A DNA stretch of 36,910 nucleotides from Candidatus Saccharibacteria bacterium (lineage in GTDB: Bacteria > Patescibacteriota > Saccharimonadia > JAGOAT01). The stretch lies in NCBI GenBank assembly GCA_017983775.1, contig JAGOAT010000006.1, positions 1 to 36,910 on the forward strand, in the 5' to 3' direction. A program made the position numbers and the translations under genes. Of the stretch, positions 1 to 36,096 are shown piece by piece. The notes below the pieces were generated by a model. The model worked only from the letters and a program-made list of their open reading frames with translations. It did no database searches and was not told the origin of the DNA. Every line of letters starts with the position of its first letter. Within the stretch, counting starts at the first letter, position 1.

Positions 1-50
1 TGCTGGATCTCCGGTCTTGCCCTTCGGGCAACCCGAAGATGACGGGGTGG
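1..50 (+). repeat. Right half of REP/BIME-like palindromic element (copy 1)
   Basis: This is the right-hand hairpin module of the repeat family that recurs in the window. The stem is TTGCCC/GGGCAA around TTC, and the end reads CCGAAGATGACGGGG. It is almost identical to 32849-32889. The left module lies outside the window. Confidence 0.8.
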
Positions 51-140
51 AGGGCTGGATTTTGGAATATGACGGGGTGGGGAGGGAACCTTGGAGGATG
101 ACGGAGTTGGGGAGGGAGATTTGAAAGATGATGGGGTGGG
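45..140 (+). repeat. G-rich degenerate tandem tail of the repeat
   Basis: Three or four degenerate units of about 30 bases follow the hairpin module. Each carries a GGAAKATGACGG-like core and a G-rich stretch such as GGGGTGGGGAGGG. Similar tails follow the copies at 10136 and 32771. They may be serial partial duplications of the terminal ATGACG motif. No gene is visible here. Confidence 0.6.
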
Positions 141-141
141 A

Positions 142-173
142 TCATCCTCCGAAACCCGGAGGGTTTACGGGGT
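142..173 (+). repeat. Left hairpin module of REP-like element (copy 2, isolated)
   Basis: The module reads TCATCCTCCG, then the stem AAACCC/GGGTTT around GGA, then ACGGGG. Its stem sequence differs from other copies but remains self-complementary. Between it and the mnmG promoter (174-262) I see nothing else. Confidence 0.65.
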
Positions 174-3922: not shown

Positions 3923-4222
3923 CTTCAAGCTTAAGTTAATGGCATTGCACTATCATCCTCCGCAACTCAGTCTCTTCTATCATCTTCTGACACTCTCCTG
4001 TCTTGTCACCCCTGGCCTCCTTGTCATCCTCCGATTGTCCAGAGGACAATACGAGGGATCCAGTATTTATAGCCATTGACATTCGTAGTACTCAAAGCGG
4101 AGCTTCGAGTATCTGAGACAATACACAAACAACAGTATAAACCAACCAATACAATCAATTATCTTGAGCCTCGAATCCTCAATACTTCGAAGTTCAAACT
4201 TACAAGGAACAGGTCTTTTGCT
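3923..4222. other. Intergenic region with repeat fragments
   Basis: No gene is supported here. TCATCTTC- and TCATCCTC-like fragments at about 3951-4020 lead into a partial repeat copy at 4021-4062. The plus-strand open frame near 4076-4279 overlaps the end of a minus-strand gene and looks accidental. Confidence 0.6.
4021..4062 (+). repeat. Left hairpin module of REP-like element (copy 3)
   Basis: The module reads GTCATCCTCCG, the stem ATTGTCC/GGACAAT (with one extra base), ACGAGGGATCCA, and then diverges. It is the same stem version as at 10136 and 32649. Confidence 0.75.
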
Positions 4223-5901: not shown

Positions 5902-6101
5902 CCCCCTTATGATTACATATTTACCCCAATCTGTCTATCTTAGTTACTAACTTTTAGCAATTAGACCTTATGCTTGACTGACAGATAATTTTGCTAAGTT
6001 ACCTATAATATTAGATCATTATTGAATTGAATTATCGTGTTAACCTAAAAAAATAACCAAGATAAGTCGTTTGTAAAATATTACCTCTCCAAAAAAACTT
6101 C

Positions 6102-6199
6102 ATCATCTTCCAAATTTCTGTAACTCTCCACCTCGTCATATTCCAAATCTCAGCAGAGGTGGATCCCCCCGTAAGCTCTCCGAGCTTCGGAGGATGACA
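6102..6199 (-). repeat. REP/BIME-like element, minus orientation (copy 4)
   Basis: Read on the minus strand it gives GTCATCCTCCG, the stem AAGCTC/GAGCTT around GGA, ACGGGGGGATCCAC, TCTGCTGAGATTTGG and AATATGACG, with a second degenerate ATGATG end. The stem version matches the second copy at 32771. Confidence 0.75.
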
Positions 6200-9817: not shown

Positions 9818-10135
9818 TATCCTCCGCTATCTATTCTCGGAATTTACCCCTATTCAGATACTCCATCCGGTTACCCAAGACAAATATTTGACACAATATT
9901 AAATAGCTTCAGATTATAGACCCCGAAAAACAAACAGGTCTTGGTTTGGTCGGCTATAGATTTTCGTAATTATCCGCCATCTCCAGAGCAAACCCCTAAA
10001 TCCAAAAACAAACAAAAGCACAAAGGTGGCATCAGCATCAATGTGCAGTTCTATCATCCTTCGATAACCTCCCAGCTATCTTATTACCCCCAATACCCCC
10101 TGCCTTGTCATCCTCCGAAACCCGACCTTTTTTAT

Positions 10136-10256
10136 GTCATCCTCCGATTGTCCGGAGGACAATACGGGGGATCCACCTCTCTTGATATTTAGATAGTCTT
10201 TTGATGCATAATGCTGGATCTTCGGTCTTGCCCTTTGGGCAACCTGAAGATGACGA
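10136..10256 (+). repeat. Complete REP/BIME-like element (copy 5)
   Basis: The left module has the stem ATTGTCC/GGACAAT around GGA. A spacer of about 35 bases contains TAGATAGTCTTTTGATGC. The right module has the stem TTGCCC/GGGCAA around TTT and ends CTGAAGATGACG. The ends form an imperfect GTCATC...GATGAC inverted repeat. A degenerate ATGACR-rich tail follows to about 10320. Confidence 0.85.
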
Positions 10257-10560
10257 GAGGGGTGGGGGTTTTGGAATATGACAAGAGGAAGGGTGACAGA
10301 ATTTTGGAAGATGACGAGGTGCAAGCTTACAGGGATTTGGAATACCTATTAGTAGGTTGAGGTTTAGAATATGAAGAGATAAGGTTAATGGAGACTTGGA
10401 AAGAGGATAGGGTGAGGGTTGCGGTTGATGACAGACGCAATGACAGATAACCCAGCTCAACACTATTCCCCCGAAGTGATCTCTGACTTTTTCTATAATC
10501 TTTTTCCGACTCCAAAGACATGGGTTTAAGTGATTAGAGAGCTAACCAGCAAAAATCAGT

Positions 10561-23764: not shown

Positions 23765-25387
23765 ATGGGAAATGACTTAATTCAGGTTGTCAATCAGCCT
23801 ACGAGTAAGGGTTATGAATTATTAAATAGTATTGTTACTAATACTTCTGGCAATGTCTATGGTTTCTGGCCTTATGTTCCTGCTGACACAATTGCAGCCG
23901 CGATGGCTAGACTATCTAGAAGTCCTGATGATCTCAGAGTTAACCTACTTTTAGAATTTTCTAATGAAATTAAGCATCTAGATAGAATTCAACAACTATC
24001 CAGAGAAGTCGATAGAAACAAGACAAATAATCTCATGAAACGAGTTCTTACAGCCTATGGAGATGACTCAGTTCAACAGCTATTACCAATTCAACTAGTT
24101 GTTGAAAATACCTCAAACATTATGACAAAGACTATTGAGTGGCATAGATTAGGTGCCTATCTAGAACAATCTACAAGATACATATTCTTTGATCAAAAAA
24201 TCAATGGCCACTACCGATATCATACTCCAGAAGAATTATCTGAATCTGATAAAATCTATTATCAATCTGTAATGGACCAAGTTTTTGACAACTATTCAGC
24301 CCTAGTCACCAAGCTAACACAATATATTCGAGACAAAAATCCAAAACCAATAGATAAGGGTGAATACCTTGCTTGGGTAGCAGCTACTAGAGCCCAAGCA
24401 TGTGATAGTGCCCGACCTTTACTACCAGTAGCAACTACTTCAACAGTTGGCATAGTTGCCAATGCTCAAACTATCGAATATATGATTACTTCCTTAATTT
24501 CAAATCAGTTAATAGAAGCTCAAAAGCTAGGTCTATCAATCCTCAAGGAAGTTCGCAAGATCTATCCAGTATTCTTTGAGCGTGTAGACATGCCTAGTCG
24601 AGGATTAACTACCTCAGCTTATAAATCACAAATCAGTATGAATCTTGAGCAACTTGCCCATGAGCTCAAGTTCCCAAAAAGCCCTAATGATAAATCAGTC
24701 AGACTGATTAATGTATGGCCTAACTTTGAAGAAATTTATAGTAAGATACTCTTTGAATACACTCAGGCTGACTCAATATCGTTAAAGTCTATTACTGACC
24801 AGTACGACTCGGAATCATCAGAAAGACTCTGGGAAGCATTTATTGGCAAAAGAATGAATCGTAGGCACAAACCAGGCAAAGCCTTAGAGATAATCCATTA
24901 TGAATGGGAAATTATTGGAGATTATGGGACATTTAGAGATCTTCAACGTCATCGAATGGTAGATGATATGCGTTGGCAAAAACTCTCTCCAGAACTAGGT
25001 TATGATGTTCCAGAATTGGTCATTGAAGCTGGTCTTGAATCAATCTTTCGGGAGACAAATGAGCTATCTCACCAACTCTACAACTACCTAGAGGAGACTC
25101 AAAATCAATCAATTGCCCAATACGCCTGCTTACTCGCAAATAAGATACGGTATCGTTTTGTAATTAATGCGCGTAGCCTAACGCATCTTCTTGAAATCAG
25201 AACTACTCCACAAGGCCACCCTGGCTATCGCAAAATCTGTCAAGAAATGTATAGTCAGGTAATGAAATCTACACCGGAAATCGCCAAGATGATGAGATTT
25301 GTCAGCCAAGATGAAGACCCAGAGCTAACTAGACTAGCGAGCGAACAAGCAACTGTCAAAAAATTAAAGGAACTAACCGAACAATGA
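23765..25387 (+). CDS. Tandem ThyX-like (flavin-dependent thymidylate synthase family) protein
   Basis: ThyX makes dTMP from dUMP with FAD and methylene-THF. Standard ThyX is about 220-260 residues; this is 540 and reads as two ThyX-like halves. The first half has EWHRLGAYLEQSTRY (125-139), matching RHRxxSxNExSxRY with Trp for the first Arg, and ARPLLP (216-221). The second half has RHRMVDDMRWQKLSPELGY (395-413) and NARSLTHLLEIR (468-479), matching the C-terminal ThyX signature. Each half lost a different part, suggesting a fused pseudo-dimer with perhaps one composite active site. A GGGGG Shine-Dalgarno precedes the ATG. pyrG overlaps by four bases. No ThyA is visible. Catalytic competence is unproven. 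Confidence 0.82.
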   Translation: MGNDLIQVVNQPTSKGYELLNSIVTNTSGNVYGFWPYVPADTIAAAMARLSRSPDDLRVNLLLEFSNEIKHLDRIQQLSREVDRNKTNNLMKRVLTAYGDDSVQQLLPIQLVVENTSNIMTKTIEWHRLGAYLEQSTRYIFFDQKINGHYRYHTPEELSESDKIYYQSVMDQVFDNYSALVTKLTQYIRDKNPKPIDKGEYLAWVAATRAQACDSARPLLPVATTSTVGIVANAQTIEYMITSLISNQLIEAQKLGLSILKEVRKIYPVFFERVDMPSRGLTTSAYKSQISMNLEQLAHELKFPKSPNDKSVRLINVWPNFEEIYSKILFEYTQADSISLKSITDQYDSESSERLWEAFIGKRMNRRHKPGKALEIIHYEWEIIGDYGTFRDLQRHRMVDDMRWQKLSPELGYDVPELVIEAGLESIFRETNELSHQLYNYLEETQNQSIAQYACLLANKIRYRFVINARSLTHLLEIRTTPQGHPGYRKICQEMYSQVMKSTPEIAKMMRFVSQDEDPELTRLASEQATVKKLKELTEQ

Positions 25388-26982: not shown

Positions 26983-27217
26983 TGTAGCCAAAAAACAAAA
27001 CCCATAACCTTGACCGTATCTTACGGTACATACCTGTCACTGTTACTTCTCATCATATCTATATATATGATTTATCACAATAACAATAATTCTAGATCCA
27101 TAATCTATTACTCCAAGCGAACAGGTTTGTTTTGGGCGGCTACAGACCTGACTCCCAGCCGTTATTAAATCAAATCTCCGAGGAATATTGTAGGATTTTT
27201 TGAGCAAAGTAGCTCAT

Positions 27218-27340
27218 ATCATCCTCCGAAACCACGTCTTCCGTCTTGTCATCCCTCAAAACCCGAGGGCTTAGCTTCACGTCATCCTCCGATTGTTCAT
27301 AGAACAATACGGGGGATCCACCCCTACTGGCACTTGGATA
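27218..27340 (+). repeat. REP/BIME-like element, rearranged (copy 6)
   Basis: Two TCATCC-type starts precede a left module with the stem ATTGTTC/GAACAAT and ACGGGGGATCCACC, then a diverged spacer. An extra module carries AAACCC/GGGCTT. The right module is lost. Confidence 0.7.
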
Positions 27341-27430
27341 ATCCCTTAATTCGGAATACTAGATATTTTATACCATACAAATAATCAAAGGACACCATAA
27401 GCGTAATGGATACTTAGGCGCTCGGATACT

Positions 27431-32628: not shown

Positions 32629-32648
32629 GCGGACAAAAAATAAATAAC

Positions 32649-32762
32649 CCTCCGATTGTCCGTAGGACAATACGGGGGATCCATCTCTGCTGAGGTTTAG
32701 ATAGTCTTTTAATGCAAAATACTGGATATCCCATAAATCCCTAAGGGATTTTGGAATATGAC
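32649..32762 (+). repeat. REP/BIME-like element (copy 7a)
   Basis: The left stem is ATTGTCC/GGACAAT. The spacer contains TAGATAGTCTTTTAATGC. The right stem is AATCCC/GGGATT around TAA, in place of TTGCCC/GGGCAA, ending GGAATATGACG. Confidence 0.85.
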
Positions 32763-32770
32763 GCAGGGGC

Positions 32771-32889
32771 GTCATATTCCGAAGCTCGGAGAGCTTACGG
32801 GGGATCCACTTCTACTGACATCTGGATAGTCTTTTGATACATAATGCTGGATCTCCGGTCTTGCCCTTCGGGCAACCCGAAGATGACGG
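32771..32889 (+). repeat. REP/BIME-like element (copy 7b, most complete)
   Basis: A 119-bp unit with ends GTCATATTCCG and CCGAAGATGACG. The left stem is AAGCTC/GAGCTT around GGA. The spacer contains TGGATAGTCTTTTGATAC. The right stem is TTGCCC/GGGCAA. It abuts copy 7a in the same orientation. Confidence 0.88.
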
Positions 32890-33129
32890 GATGGAGGGCT
32901 GGGTTTTAAGAGGTGACGGAATGGAGGTTATGAAGCCTTTCAAGCTGATACGCTTGAGGATGCAGTTGGGATTTGTAAGTCTTGGATATTCAGGAAATCA
33001 GCAAAAAACAGAACTAGGAAAATGTAATGAACTAACCCGGACTCTAGATACTATGACTAGCAATCCCGACAACCAAAAGTTTGAATCTTATCTCAATCTG
33101 AAAGAAGTTTCTTAATATCAATAGACTTC

Positions 33130-33870: not shown

Positions 33871-34004
33871 TACCAGCTCCCGATTAATACTCTAGTAGTA
33901 TTATGCACTATATAAATACAAATATAAAGTATTAAATCCAAGAGTACCCAGCATTGACCCACCACTAGGCCTGTGCTAGACTTGGATTAGTCCTTGGTGG
34001 AATG

Positions 34005-34115
34005 ATTTGTTACAAAACAAATTAACGGGGAAGTAGGGTGAGATTCCCTCGCTGTGCCGCAACTGTAAGCTTGCCTAGTCAAGCAAAGCCAGAATACCGT
34101 ACCATCAATAGACGT
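34005..34115 (+). ncRNA. Cobalamin riboswitch (aptamer)
   Basis: The conserved core reads GGGGAAGTAGGGTGAGATTCCC at 34027-34048 (overall shape GGGAA..GGTGAxATTCCC), then GCCGCAACTGTAAGC (34055-34069), and a B12-box-like AAGCCAGAATACC (34086-34098). The peripheral region between the last two is short, so this is a compact class. It lies in a leader of over 200 bases before the DUF4430 gene, which is rare among the mostly leaderless genes here. Promoter candidates are two TATAAA boxes at 33911 and 33923. Confidence 0.9.
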
Positions 34116-34157
34116 GTCCTTCGTAGCAAAGGAGCGTGTTGATTTAGACACACCTAA

Positions 34158-34187
34158 CCCTTTGCGATTAATATTTACCAAAGAGGG
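34158..34187 (+). promoter_or_regulatory. Shine-Dalgarno-sequestering hairpin of the riboswitch
   Basis: CCCTTTG (34158-34164) pairs with CAAAGAGGG (34179-34187, one bulged A), covering the Shine-Dalgarno GAGGG of the following gene. It suggests translational control. A second hairpin, AGG..GTGT/ACAC.CCT (about 34130-34155), may be the switching partner. Confidence 0.55.
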
Positions 34188-34192
34188 AAGTG

Positions 34193-34900
34193 ATGAAAGT
34201 ATCTACTATATTGACTGGCAACTTCAAGCAATCTATTAGATTTAAAGACCTAGCAATTCTTGGGATAGTCCTGATAATGATCCTAGCTACCTTTGCTACG
34301 ATCAAAGTTTTTGCTGGACAAGTCGAACATAGATCTCTATCCAACAACCAACAACAATCGCTAGTTGTTGATCATCAGGATCAGTCAGTATCGACCAACC
34401 CTACTTCATCTGAATCAAATTCAACTCCAAGCCAAGAGCCCACTACCCAGTCCGATCAGTCTACACCAGCAGCAACCATTTCTGATAGTAACAATTCTTC
34501 TAGTCAACCCGAACCCAACATAGCCCCCCAGTTGGCAATAACTAATCCTAATCCTCCGACCAACCCTTCGAGTCAACCAAACCCAGAGCCTATCCAGCCT
34601 GAAACCTTAAATATTAAGCTCCAAATCAATACTGATTCAGTCATACCACTAAAAATACTAGCTGGACTCAACCATTGCCAGCTGCTTGAACAAGCTCACA
34701 GTCAAGGCAAAATTAGCCAGCTAAATATTCGCTATTTCCCCGAGTATTCAAGCATGGGGGTAATCAGCATCAATAATATCGGCGATGCCAATCAAGTATA
34801 TTGGACTTATAAAGTCAATGGAGCTGGTCCACCCCTGGGTTGCTCTCAGGTTTTGGTCAAATCTGGAGATTTTGTATTATGGGAATATCAAGGTAAATAA
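34193..34900 (+). CDS. Membrane-anchored DUF4430 (transcobalamin C-terminal-like) protein
   Basis: The 235-residue protein has a membrane anchor (about 20-41), a long Ser/Pro/Gln/Asn-rich stalk (about 48-138) and a C-terminal domain (about 139-235). That domain has the DUF4430 hallmarks YWTYKVNG (203-210) and GDFVLWEY (225-232), with C162 and C217 possibly paired. DUF4430 is related to the beta domain of animal intrinsic factor and transcobalamin, which covers bound cobalamin. Start at ATG 34193 with GAGGG five bases upstream; the GTG one codon earlier is unlikely. Control by a cobalamin riboswitch strongly supports B12 binding. It is eight bases from the next gene, which supplies the alpha-barrel domain. 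Confidence 0.87.
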   Translation: MKVSTILTGNFKQSIRFKDLAILGIVLIMILATFATIKVFAGQVEHRSLSNNQQQSLVVDHQDQSVSTNPTSSESNSTPSQEPTTQSDQSTPAATISDSNNSSSQPEPNIAPQLAITNPNPPTNPSSQPNPEPIQPETLNIKLQINTDSVIPLKILAGLNHCQLLEQAHSQGKISQLNIRYFPEYSSMGVISINNIGDANQVYWTYKVNGAGPPLGCSQVLVKSGDFVLWEYQGK

Positions 34901-34908
34901 GGAGTAAA

Positions 34909-36096
34909 ATGCAAAAAATTATTAACTACATTATCACCCTAATGGCAACAACCGGTCTTGTTCTGGTTAGTCCAAGTCTAGCTTTAGCTAGCCCTGCAGT
35001 TGGTGGAACTGATTGTCAAATTCTCAGATCTACACAGTATCTCAATACTCAACAATCAATTACAACTGGAGAGATCAATGGCTTTGGTGGTAATTCGGAC
35101 TGGTCTAGCATTGGTCTAGTCGCAGCTGGACTTGATCCAGCAAGCTTTAGTAATCAATCAGGTCCGACCATAATTGACTACCTAGTAAGTAATCCTTTGG
35201 ATCCTGCTAGCTCAGCTACTACTATCGAGAAAAGGATTTTGGCAATTAATGCACTTGGACAAGATCCTCAAGATTTTTATGGAATAGACTATCTAGACCG
35301 ACTACTTACTACTTATCAAGCCAACCAATTAGGTGATCCTAGTCTCCTCAATGATGATATATTTGGAATAATTGCACTCATTGGTAGTGGCCAAACCAAT
35401 CAAGCAGTCTTGCTTGATAGTCTCAATTATTTGATAACCAATCAAAGTCCTGATGGAGGATTTGGCTATAGCTTGTCCAGTGGTTCCGATACCAATGATA
35501 CTGCTTCAGCATTAGTGGCTTTGATCAGTAGCAAACAAGCAGACCTTGCCCATTCTAATCTTGATCTAGCCATCAGTAATGCGGTGACCTACCTGCTGAA
35601 TAGTCAAAATACAGATGGTGGTTTTGGCTACTTGCCTGGTGACATCTCTGATGGATCTTCAACTACTTGGAACCTGATTGCTCTCAATGCAATTAGCACC
35701 AACCAAGATGTTCAAAGTTATCAGGAGCTAGCTAGCCAATGGCTGACTAGCAACCAACTTGGTGATGGCGGCTTTGGCTACCTAGCTGAATATGGATCTG
35801 ATACCTATACCACCAGCCATGCCATAATTGCTTTGACCGGTAACACTTGGCTTAACCTAAGACCAATCCAATTGAATTGCCCTGATCAACCCATTGATCC
35901 AATCCAGCCAGTAGTTGAAGATGTCTCAACAGATTTGCCTAATCCATCTACCCAGGCTGAGGTGGGTGAAGTATTAGGCTACACTCAAGTAACCAGCTTG
36001 CCAAGTACTGGCAATTTGAATCCTTTGTCTATAATCATTGTCCTAATTCCACTCGCTGTAATATTAAGAAGAATTACACGTATTGAAACAGCCTAA
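34909..36096 (+). CDS. Surface alpha-barrel protein (squalene-cyclase repeats) with LPSTG anchor
   Basis: The 395-residue protein has a signal peptide (likely cut after ALA27) and an extracellular domain with DGGFGY repeats at 182-187, 236-241 and 286-291 plus an earlier GEINGFGG (54-61). This is the pattern of prenyltransferase/squalene-oxidase alpha/alpha barrels, the fold of the N-terminal domain of intrinsic factor and transcobalamin. It ends with LPSTG (364-368), a hydrophobic segment and RRITR, a sortase sorting signal. C36 and C324 could form a disulfide. A good Shine-Dalgarno AAGGAG precedes the ATG. Genomic pairing with the DUF4430 protein and riboswitch indicates a role in B12 capture, not terpene chemistry. 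No sortase or transporter is in view. Confidence 0.87.
   Translation: MQKIINYIITLMATTGLVLVSPSLALASPAVGGTDCQILRSTQYLNTQQSITTGEINGFGGNSDWSSIGLVAAGLDPASFSNQSGPTIIDYLVSNPLDPASSATTIEKRILAINALGQDPQDFYGIDYLDRLLTTYQANQLGDPSLLNDDIFGIIALIGSGQTNQAVLLDSLNYLITNQSPDGGFGYSLSSGSDTNDTASALVALISSKQADLAHSNLDLAISNAVTYLLNSQNTDGGFGYLPGDISDGSSTTWNLIALNAISTNQDVQSYQELASQWLTSNQLGDGGFGYLAEYGSDTYTTSHAIIALTGNTWLNLRPIQLNCPDQPIDPIQPVVEDVSTDLPNPSTQAEVGEVLGYTQVTSLPSTGNLNPLSIIIVLIPLAVILRRITRIETA

What the first reader, a model, noticed from the sequence alone, without database searches (positions are those of the whole stretch)
34005..36096. Split intrinsic-factor/transcobalamin-like B12 capture system under a cobalamin riboswitch
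Seen: a cobalamin riboswitch core, then a membrane-anchored stalk protein ending in a DUF4430 domain (YWTYKVNG, GDFVLWEY), then 8 bases later a signal-peptide protein with three DGGFGY barrel repeats and an LPSTG anchor. Known: animal intrinsic factor and transcobalamin consist of exactly these two domains, alpha/alpha barrel plus beta domain, closing around cobalamin. Inferred: the two domains are separate proteins here, one held by the membrane and one by a sortase, and close on B12 at the surface. A reduced, probably host-dependent bacterium that displays a scavenging receptor for host B12 would be notable.
Basis: partly seen in the sequence, partly recalled or inferred. Interest (0 to 1): 0.88.

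Follow-up and report, generated by a model that had tools for sequence, protein, structure and literature searches.

The report
Two-part B12 catcher in Saccharibacteria relative
A tiny-genome bacterium of the Saccharibacteria group carries, under a vitamin-B12-sensing RNA switch, genes for two separate surface proteins that resemble the two halves of the animal proteins that carry B12, and these very probably catch B12 for the one enzyme it is known to use to make DNA building blocks.

Summary
The window holds a full-length cobalamin riboswitch (RF00174, 41 bits, cut-off 31.5), then a DUF4430 protein with an N-terminal hydrophobic segment and a stalk, then after 8 bases an alpha/alpha-toroid protein with a signal peptide and an LPSTG anchor. 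A DUF4430 profile built from the window and relatives finds, among all PDB chains, only intrinsic factor and transcobalamin-1 at E<0.001. The same riboswitch-DUF4430-toroid order recurs in Saccharibacteria, Gottesmanbacteria and Magasanikbacteria, often followed by DUF6580. A DUF6580 profile has one PDB match, CbrT, the B12 S-component. In 245 genomes of the class, all 20 with DUF4430 also have DUF6580 (22 genomes do); the toroid occurs in 4, each beside a DUF4430 gene. The window's genome has DUF6580, PduO, three sortases and a B12-dependent ribonucleotide reductase as its only PF02867-type reductase, but no BtuC, CbiQ or BtuR. Best reading: a split, riboswitch-controlled surface B12 trap feeding a CbrT-like importer that lacks a detectable energising module. 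Not shown: that the two proteins close on one B12, or that the vitamin comes from a host. Burroughs et al. (2007) predicted surface DUF4430/toroid B12 scavengers, so this is a new variant, not a new kind.

The parts
33985..34116 (+). Cobalamin riboswitch aptamer (RF00174)
   Evidence: cmscan 41.0 bits, gathering 31.5, model 1-189
34117..34192 (+). Leader between aptamer and start codon, with Shine-Dalgarno AGAGGG; presumed expression platform. CCCUUUG could pair with CAAAGAGGG and mask the ribosome site, or with the upstream GCAAAGG
   Evidence: Read from sequence; predicted folds are no more stable than shuffles suggest (z about -1.1 to -1.4), so inferred
34193..34900 (+). DUF4430 (SLBB, transcobalamin beta-domain-like) stalk protein, 235 aa (GTG at 34190 is an alternative start)
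   Evidence: PF14478 33.7 bits, E 5.2e-8
34256..34312 (+). Hydrophobic segment: membrane anchor or signal peptide
   Evidence: Kyte-Doolittle maximum 2.51
34610..34897 (+). DUF4430 domain, 96 aa; Pfam match covers 34760-34891; two cysteines conserved in the Saccharibacteria-class relatives
   Evidence: Alignments A1 and A3; profile hits intrinsic factor and transcobalamin-1 in PDB
34909..36096 (+). Secreted alpha/alpha-toroid (barrel) protein, 395 aa
   Evidence: PF00432 39.3 bits, E 6.7e-10; AlphaFold2 pLDDT 91.2, pTM 0.91 for the toroid domain
34909..34989 (+). Signal peptide of the toroid protein (...SLALA-S)
   Evidence: Hydrophobic N-terminus and A-x-A motif in sequence
34999..35880 (+). 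Toroid domain
   Evidence: Alignments A2 and A4, model
35452..35469 (+). DGGFGY repeat 1
   Evidence: Sequence
35614..35631 (+). DGGFGY repeat 2
   Evidence: Sequence
35764..35781 (+). DGGFGY repeat 3
   Evidence: Sequence
35998..36012 (+). LPSTG sorting motif, followed by a hydrophobic segment to about 36066 and a basic tail
   Evidence: three sortase genes in the genome

Best explanation
This is the surface-capture part of a B12 (corrinoid) salvage pathway in a small Saccharibacteria-class genome. When B12 is short, the riboswitch allows expression of a DUF4430 beta-grasp protein on a stalk and a sortase-anchored alpha/alpha toroid protein. Together they trap corrinoid outside the membrane, probably with B12 held between toroid and beta domain as in intrinsic factor and transcobalamin, but here by two separate chains. 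The corrinoid passes to DUF6580, a remote relative of the B12 S-component CbrT encoded elsewhere in the genome, is adenosylated by PduO, and serves the B12-dependent ribonucleotide reductase. Shown: genes, riboswitch, homologies, conserved order, co-occurrence. Inferred: B12 binding, cooperation of the two proteins, hand-over, direction of regulation.
For: Riboswitch. DUF4430 profile: the only PDB matches under E 0.001 are intrinsic factor and transcobalamin-1. Toroid fold predicted with high confidence; transcobalamin among the structural matches (rank 16, E 5e-6). Riboswitch-DUF4430-toroid order in UBA6017 (L031), Gottesmanbacteria (L032) and Magasanikbacteria (L038-L040), plus sub-threshold aptamers at the matching place in L034, L027, L042 and L044. 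L032 continues with DUF6580 and PduO. Toroid in 4 of 245 class genomes, all beside a DUF4430 gene. DUF4430 and DUF6580 co-occur: all 20 DUF4430 genomes are among the 22 of 245 with DUF6580, Fisher p 2e-27, or 5e-16 counted by genus. DUF6580 profile: only PDB match is 6FNP chain A, from the ECF-CbrT structure. Toroid and DUF4430 are fused in one chain in an archaeon and a Dehalococcoidales. The genome has PduO and a B12-dependent reductase as its only PF02867 match. Other Saccharibacteria-class genomes have NrdJ-DUF4430-DUF6580-BtuR clusters, like the nrdJ-cbrS-cbrT-pduO cluster of L. delbrueckii (PMC5997447).
Against: No binding data. The window toroid is nearest to squalene-hopene cyclases by sequence and fold and does not match PF01122; only two distant relatives do, below the cut-off. 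The model of a fused relative says nothing about docking. Most class genomes with DUF4430 lack the toroid, so it is not needed for the basic role. No CbiQ-type or BtuC-type partner was found to power uptake. Co-occurrence was not corrected for phylogeny beyond counting genera.
Confidence: 0.74

Rival explanations
1. Both proteins serve B12 uptake but do not form a clamp: the DUF4430 protein alone binds B12 and hands it to the importer, while the toroid does something else, such as binding a carrier protein or another corrinoid, or shaping the surface.
For: 18 of the 22 class genomes with a DUF4430 match have no toroid; many have NrdJ-DUF4430-DUF6580-BtuR clusters.
Against: The toroid was never found in the class without an adjacent DUF4430 gene; the two domains are fused in other phyla; Burroughs et al. 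report the same fusions in Gram-positives (PMC1796856).
Confidence: 0.17
2. The toroid is a secreted terpene cyclase or prenyl-binding enzyme, and its place under the riboswitch is incidental.
For: Best sequence and fold matches are squalene-hopene cyclases and drimenyl diphosphate synthase.
Against: Signal peptide and LPSTG anchor; the position aligned with the class II cyclase DxDD motif reads DTND here and is not kept among relatives; repeated coupling to DUF4430 and cobalamin riboswitches.
Confidence: 0.03
3. The ligand is not B12 itself but a precursor or another metal chelate (cobinamide, cobalt, heme), with B12 acting only as the regulator.
For: Cobalamin riboswitches can precede metal-uptake genes (PMC2667541); the nearest bacterial DUF4430-like entry in PDB (3u7z) is titled 'putative metal binding protein', at E 0.11.
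Against: Match of DUF4430 to intrinsic factor and transcobalamin and of DUF6580 to CbrT; neighbours are adenosyltransferase and B12-dependent reductase. CbrT also takes cobinamide, so a precursor is compatible in part.
Confidence: 0.06

Closest known systems
Predicted bacterial surface SLBB (DUF4430) plus alpha/alpha-toroid B12 scavengers (Burroughs, Balaji, Iyer, Aravind 2007, PMC1796856)
   Same: Same two domains, secreted or wall-anchored, predicted to scavenge B12
   Different: There the two domains are commonly fused in one chain and travel with CbiO/CbiQ; here two chains with separate anchors, under a riboswitch, with DUF6580 and no CbiQ, in Patescibacteria
Animal intrinsic factor / transcobalamin / haptocorrin
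   Same: DUF4430 beta domain related by profile; toroid fold shared
   Different: Two chains instead of one; gene order is beta domain first; window toroid does not match PF01122 and has no significant sequence match to these proteins
Lactobacillus CbrT system (nrdJ-cbrS-cbrT-pduO; PMC5997447)
   Same: B12-dependent reductase, adenosyltransferase and S-component; DUF6580 is a remote CbrT relative
   Different: CbrT works with an ECF module; no EcfT-type (CbiQ) gene was found here; surface toroid added
BtuM, solitary S-component-like B12 transporter (PMC6072759)
   Same: Single membrane protein importing B12 without an ECF module; adenosylation proposed to trap it
   Different: DUF6580 matches CbrT, not BtuM, in the PDB sequence search; no surface capture partner is described for BtuM in the passages read

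Membership tests
Cobalamin riboswitch (RF00174) | Covariance-model score above the curated cut-off over the whole aptamer | tested here: met
   41.0 vs 31.5 bits, model 1-189
Cobalamin riboswitch (RF00174) | Binds cobalamin and switches expression | not testable with these tools
   Folds are not decisive
DUF4430 / transcobalamin-like SLBB clade | PF14478 above the gathering score | tested here: met
   33.7 vs 23.8 bits
DUF4430 / transcobalamin-like SLBB clade | Complete beta-grasp domain with the ligand-contacting hairpin | tested here: inconclusive
   Alignment A3 is collinear over 96 aa, but Pfam covers positions 26-71 only and the window domain was not modelled
Intrinsic factor / transcobalamin | PF01122 cobalamin-binding alpha domain | tested here: not met
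   Window toroid does not match at E<1; two distant relatives match below cut-off
Intrinsic factor / transcobalamin | Both domains in one chain | tested here: not met
   Two genes, different frames
Intrinsic factor / transcobalamin | B12 held between the two domains | not testable with these tools
   Docking of a fused relative came out without confidence
Bacterial toroid-SLBB B12 scavengers (Burroughs 2007) | Secreted or wall-anchored toroid and SLBB domains | tested here: met
   Signal peptide, LPSTG, three sortases; domains on two chains
Bacterial toroid-SLBB B12 scavengers (Burroughs 2007) | Association with CbiO/CbiQ transporter genes | tested here: not met
   No CbiQ in the genome
Bacterial toroid-SLBB B12 scavengers (Burroughs 2007) | Lack of B12 biosynthesis | not tested
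CbrT-type S-component (for DUF6580) | Sequence relation to CbrT | tested here: met
   Only PDB match of the A6 profile, E 2.6e-4, N-terminal half
CbrT-type S-component (for DUF6580) | ECF module in the genome | tested here: not met
   No PF02361 match
Class II terpene cyclase (squalene-hopene type) | Catalytic DxDD motif | tested here: not met
   Aligned position reads DTND; not kept in relatives

The most novel reading that the evidence does not exclude
A minimal B12 salvage system of Patescibacteria: an intrinsic-factor-like clamp split into two separately anchored surface proteins, which close on corrinoid outside the membrane and hand it to a CbrT-like S-component (DUF6580) that works without an ECF energising module, with trapping by PduO.
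Probability: 0.4. Interest if true: 0.75.

Novelty: new variant of a known kind. Interest (0 to 1): 0.62.

Why it matters
How ultra-small, partner-dependent Patescibacteria obtain B12 is little described; the paper searches made here found no account of it. This work names a full candidate route (capture pair, DUF6580, PduO, reductase) for a B12-dependent reductase, gives the uncharacterised family DUF6580 a testable function, and offers a prokaryotic split version of the animal B12 carriers in which the contribution of each half can be measured apart.

Tried and rejected
AlphaFold2 of a naturally fused relative (L035) to test docking: beta domain below 50 pLDDT, not usable. RNA folds of the leader do not separate from shuffles. 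Plasmid searches found only weak Streptomyces matches for the toroid and none for DUF4430. Terpene-cyclase role rejected on the motif and secretion. BtuCD route rejected: no FecCD-type gene. Paper searches for riboswitch-transcobalamin-prenyltransferase and for CPR-cobalamin-reductase-riboswitch returned nothing.

Full report
Setting. The window is contig C6 of a 787 kb, 43-contig genome, 97.4% complete. Its class includes a genome (G199) one of whose contigs matches a Candidatus Saccharibacteria record in content and length (L034, 81,052 bases), so it is treated as Saccharibacteria-like; its own name is not known.

What is in the sequence. A cobalamin riboswitch lies at 33985-34116 (41.0 bits, cut-off 31.5, whole model) and is the only one in the genome. 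It is followed by a 235-aa protein with one N-terminal hydrophobic segment, a low-complexity stalk and a C-terminal DUF4430 domain (PF14478, E 5e-8). Eight bases after its stop begins a 395-aa protein with a signal peptide, an alpha/alpha-toroid domain (PF00432, E 7e-10), three DGGFGY repeats, and LPSTG plus a hydrophobic segment and basic tail. Whether the DUF4430 protein stays in the membrane or is cleaved is open: several relatives have plausible signal-peptidase sites by eye.

Is DUF4430 here really the transcobalamin kind? A profile of the window domain and eleven relatives searched against all PDB chains gives gastric intrinsic factor (two entries, E 7e-4) and transcobalamin-1 (E 7e-4), then nothing below 0.1. 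The four Saccharibacteria-class proteins share two cysteines and the W..K.NG-like and W.Y motifs.

Is the toroid a B12 toroid? The fold is confident (AlphaFold2 pLDDT 91.2, pTM 0.91). By Foldseek the best matches are squalene-hopene cyclases (E 2e-8); transcobalamin follows at rank 16 (E 5e-6, query TM 0.61). By sequence it matches cyclases, not transcobalamin, and it does not match PF01122; two distant relatives do so below the cut-off. So the toroid alone would not identify the function. Its catalytic motif position reads DTND rather than DxDD, and the protein is secreted, which argues against a cyclase.

Context in related genomes. A scan of GTDB genomes with the toroid alignment gave 15 loci. 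A DUF4430 gene precedes the toroid gene in Saccharibacteria, Gottesmanbacteria, Doudnabacteria and Magasanikbacteria loci. Cobalamin-type riboswitches above cut-off lie upstream in L031, L032, L038, L039, L040 and, for a toroid protein with a diverged C-terminal domain in Solirubrobacterales, L045. Weaker aptamer matches sit at the matching place in L034 (36.3 against 36.5), L027, L042 and L044. L036, L037 and L043 showed none. In Gottesmanbacteria L032 the unit reads AdoCbl-II riboswitch, DUF4430, toroid, DUF6580, PduO. In Magasanikbacteria a DUF6580-like gene also follows. In an archaeon (L033) and a Dehalococcoidales (L035) toroid and DUF4430 are one chain.

Census. In 245 genomes of the class, DUF4430 passes its cut-off in 20, DUF6580 in 22, and all 20 are among the 22 (Fisher p 2e-27; by genus 13 of 13 against 14 of 110, p 5e-16). 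This includes genomes in which the two genes are on different contigs, such as the window's. The toroid occurs in 4 of 245, always beside a DUF4430 gene. Many of the other DUF4430 genomes have a cluster NrdJ, short DUF4430, DUF6580, BtuR without toroid.

The importer. DUF6580 appears in no paper of the library. A profile of 13 members has a single match in all of PDB: 6FNP chain A (E 2.6e-4). 6FNP is the ECF-CbrT structure, and the 182-aa chain titled membrane protein fits the S-component CbrT. The L. delbrueckii cluster nrdJ-cbrS-cbrT-pduO is parallel to the clusters seen here, and a DUF4430 gene next to rtpR is noted in L. rhamnosus. The window's genome has one DUF6580 (G000:C1:20348-20800) and one PduO (G000:C18:5443-5964), but no CbiQ, FecCD or BtuR. 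BtuM is a precedent for an S-component-like protein that imports B12 without an ECF module.

The need for B12. The only PF02867 match in the genome is a 1010-aa reductase scoring 1092 bits on the B12-dependent model NF005122 (cut-off 859), beside an nrdR-like gene. NrdD-type reductases and B12 biosynthesis were not searched.

Mechanism. Low B12 frees the leader; the two surface proteins are made; corrinoid is trapped outside, most likely between toroid and DUF4430 by analogy with transcobalamin; it passes to DUF6580, is adenosylated and used. Only the parts list, homologies and associations are shown. The clamp, the hand-over and the direction of regulation are inferred.

Relation to the known. 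Burroughs et al. 2007 defined the SLBB superfamily, described bacterial toroid/SLBB fusions in either order, and predicted surface B12 scavenging with CbiO/CbiQ. What is added here: the split form with separate anchors, its riboswitch, its occurrence across Patescibacteria, and DUF6580 as the likely importer. It is predicted to work like intrinsic factor/transcobalamin; it is not a member of that family, since single-chain architecture and PF01122 were tested and not met.

Noticed in passing
window 1-172, 4022-4062, 6097-6198, 10096-10320, 27217-27367, 32639-32924: Dispersed, mostly intergenic palindromic repeat (TGTCATCCTCCGATTGTCC...GGACAATACGGGGGATCCA...GATGACG), several copies per 37 kb, both orientations.
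   Followed up: partly
G000:C1:20348-20800 (L047:8289-8846): DUF6580, an uncharacterised family, is a remote CbrT relative and carries an invariant His in an RxLPH-like motif across 13 members; the His could be a cobalt ligand, untested.
   Followed up: partly
L007, L008, L009, L012 and similar loci: Other Saccharibacteria-class genomes have a toroid-free cluster NrdJ, short DUF4430, DUF6580, BtuR.
   Followed up: yes
class of 245 genomes: NrdJ_Z (TIGR02504) passes its cut-off in 95 genomes, far more than the 22 with DUF6580, so many must obtain B12 another way or the reductase model is too generous.
   Followed up: no
L032:3598-4944: 448-aa protein after PduO in the Gottesmanbacteria operon, with a C-terminal zinc-ribbon-like motif and no Pfam match.
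   Followed up: no
window 23765-25387: 540-aa protein that reads like two ThyX (flavin-dependent thymidylate synthase) copies in tandem; judged by eye only.
   Followed up: no
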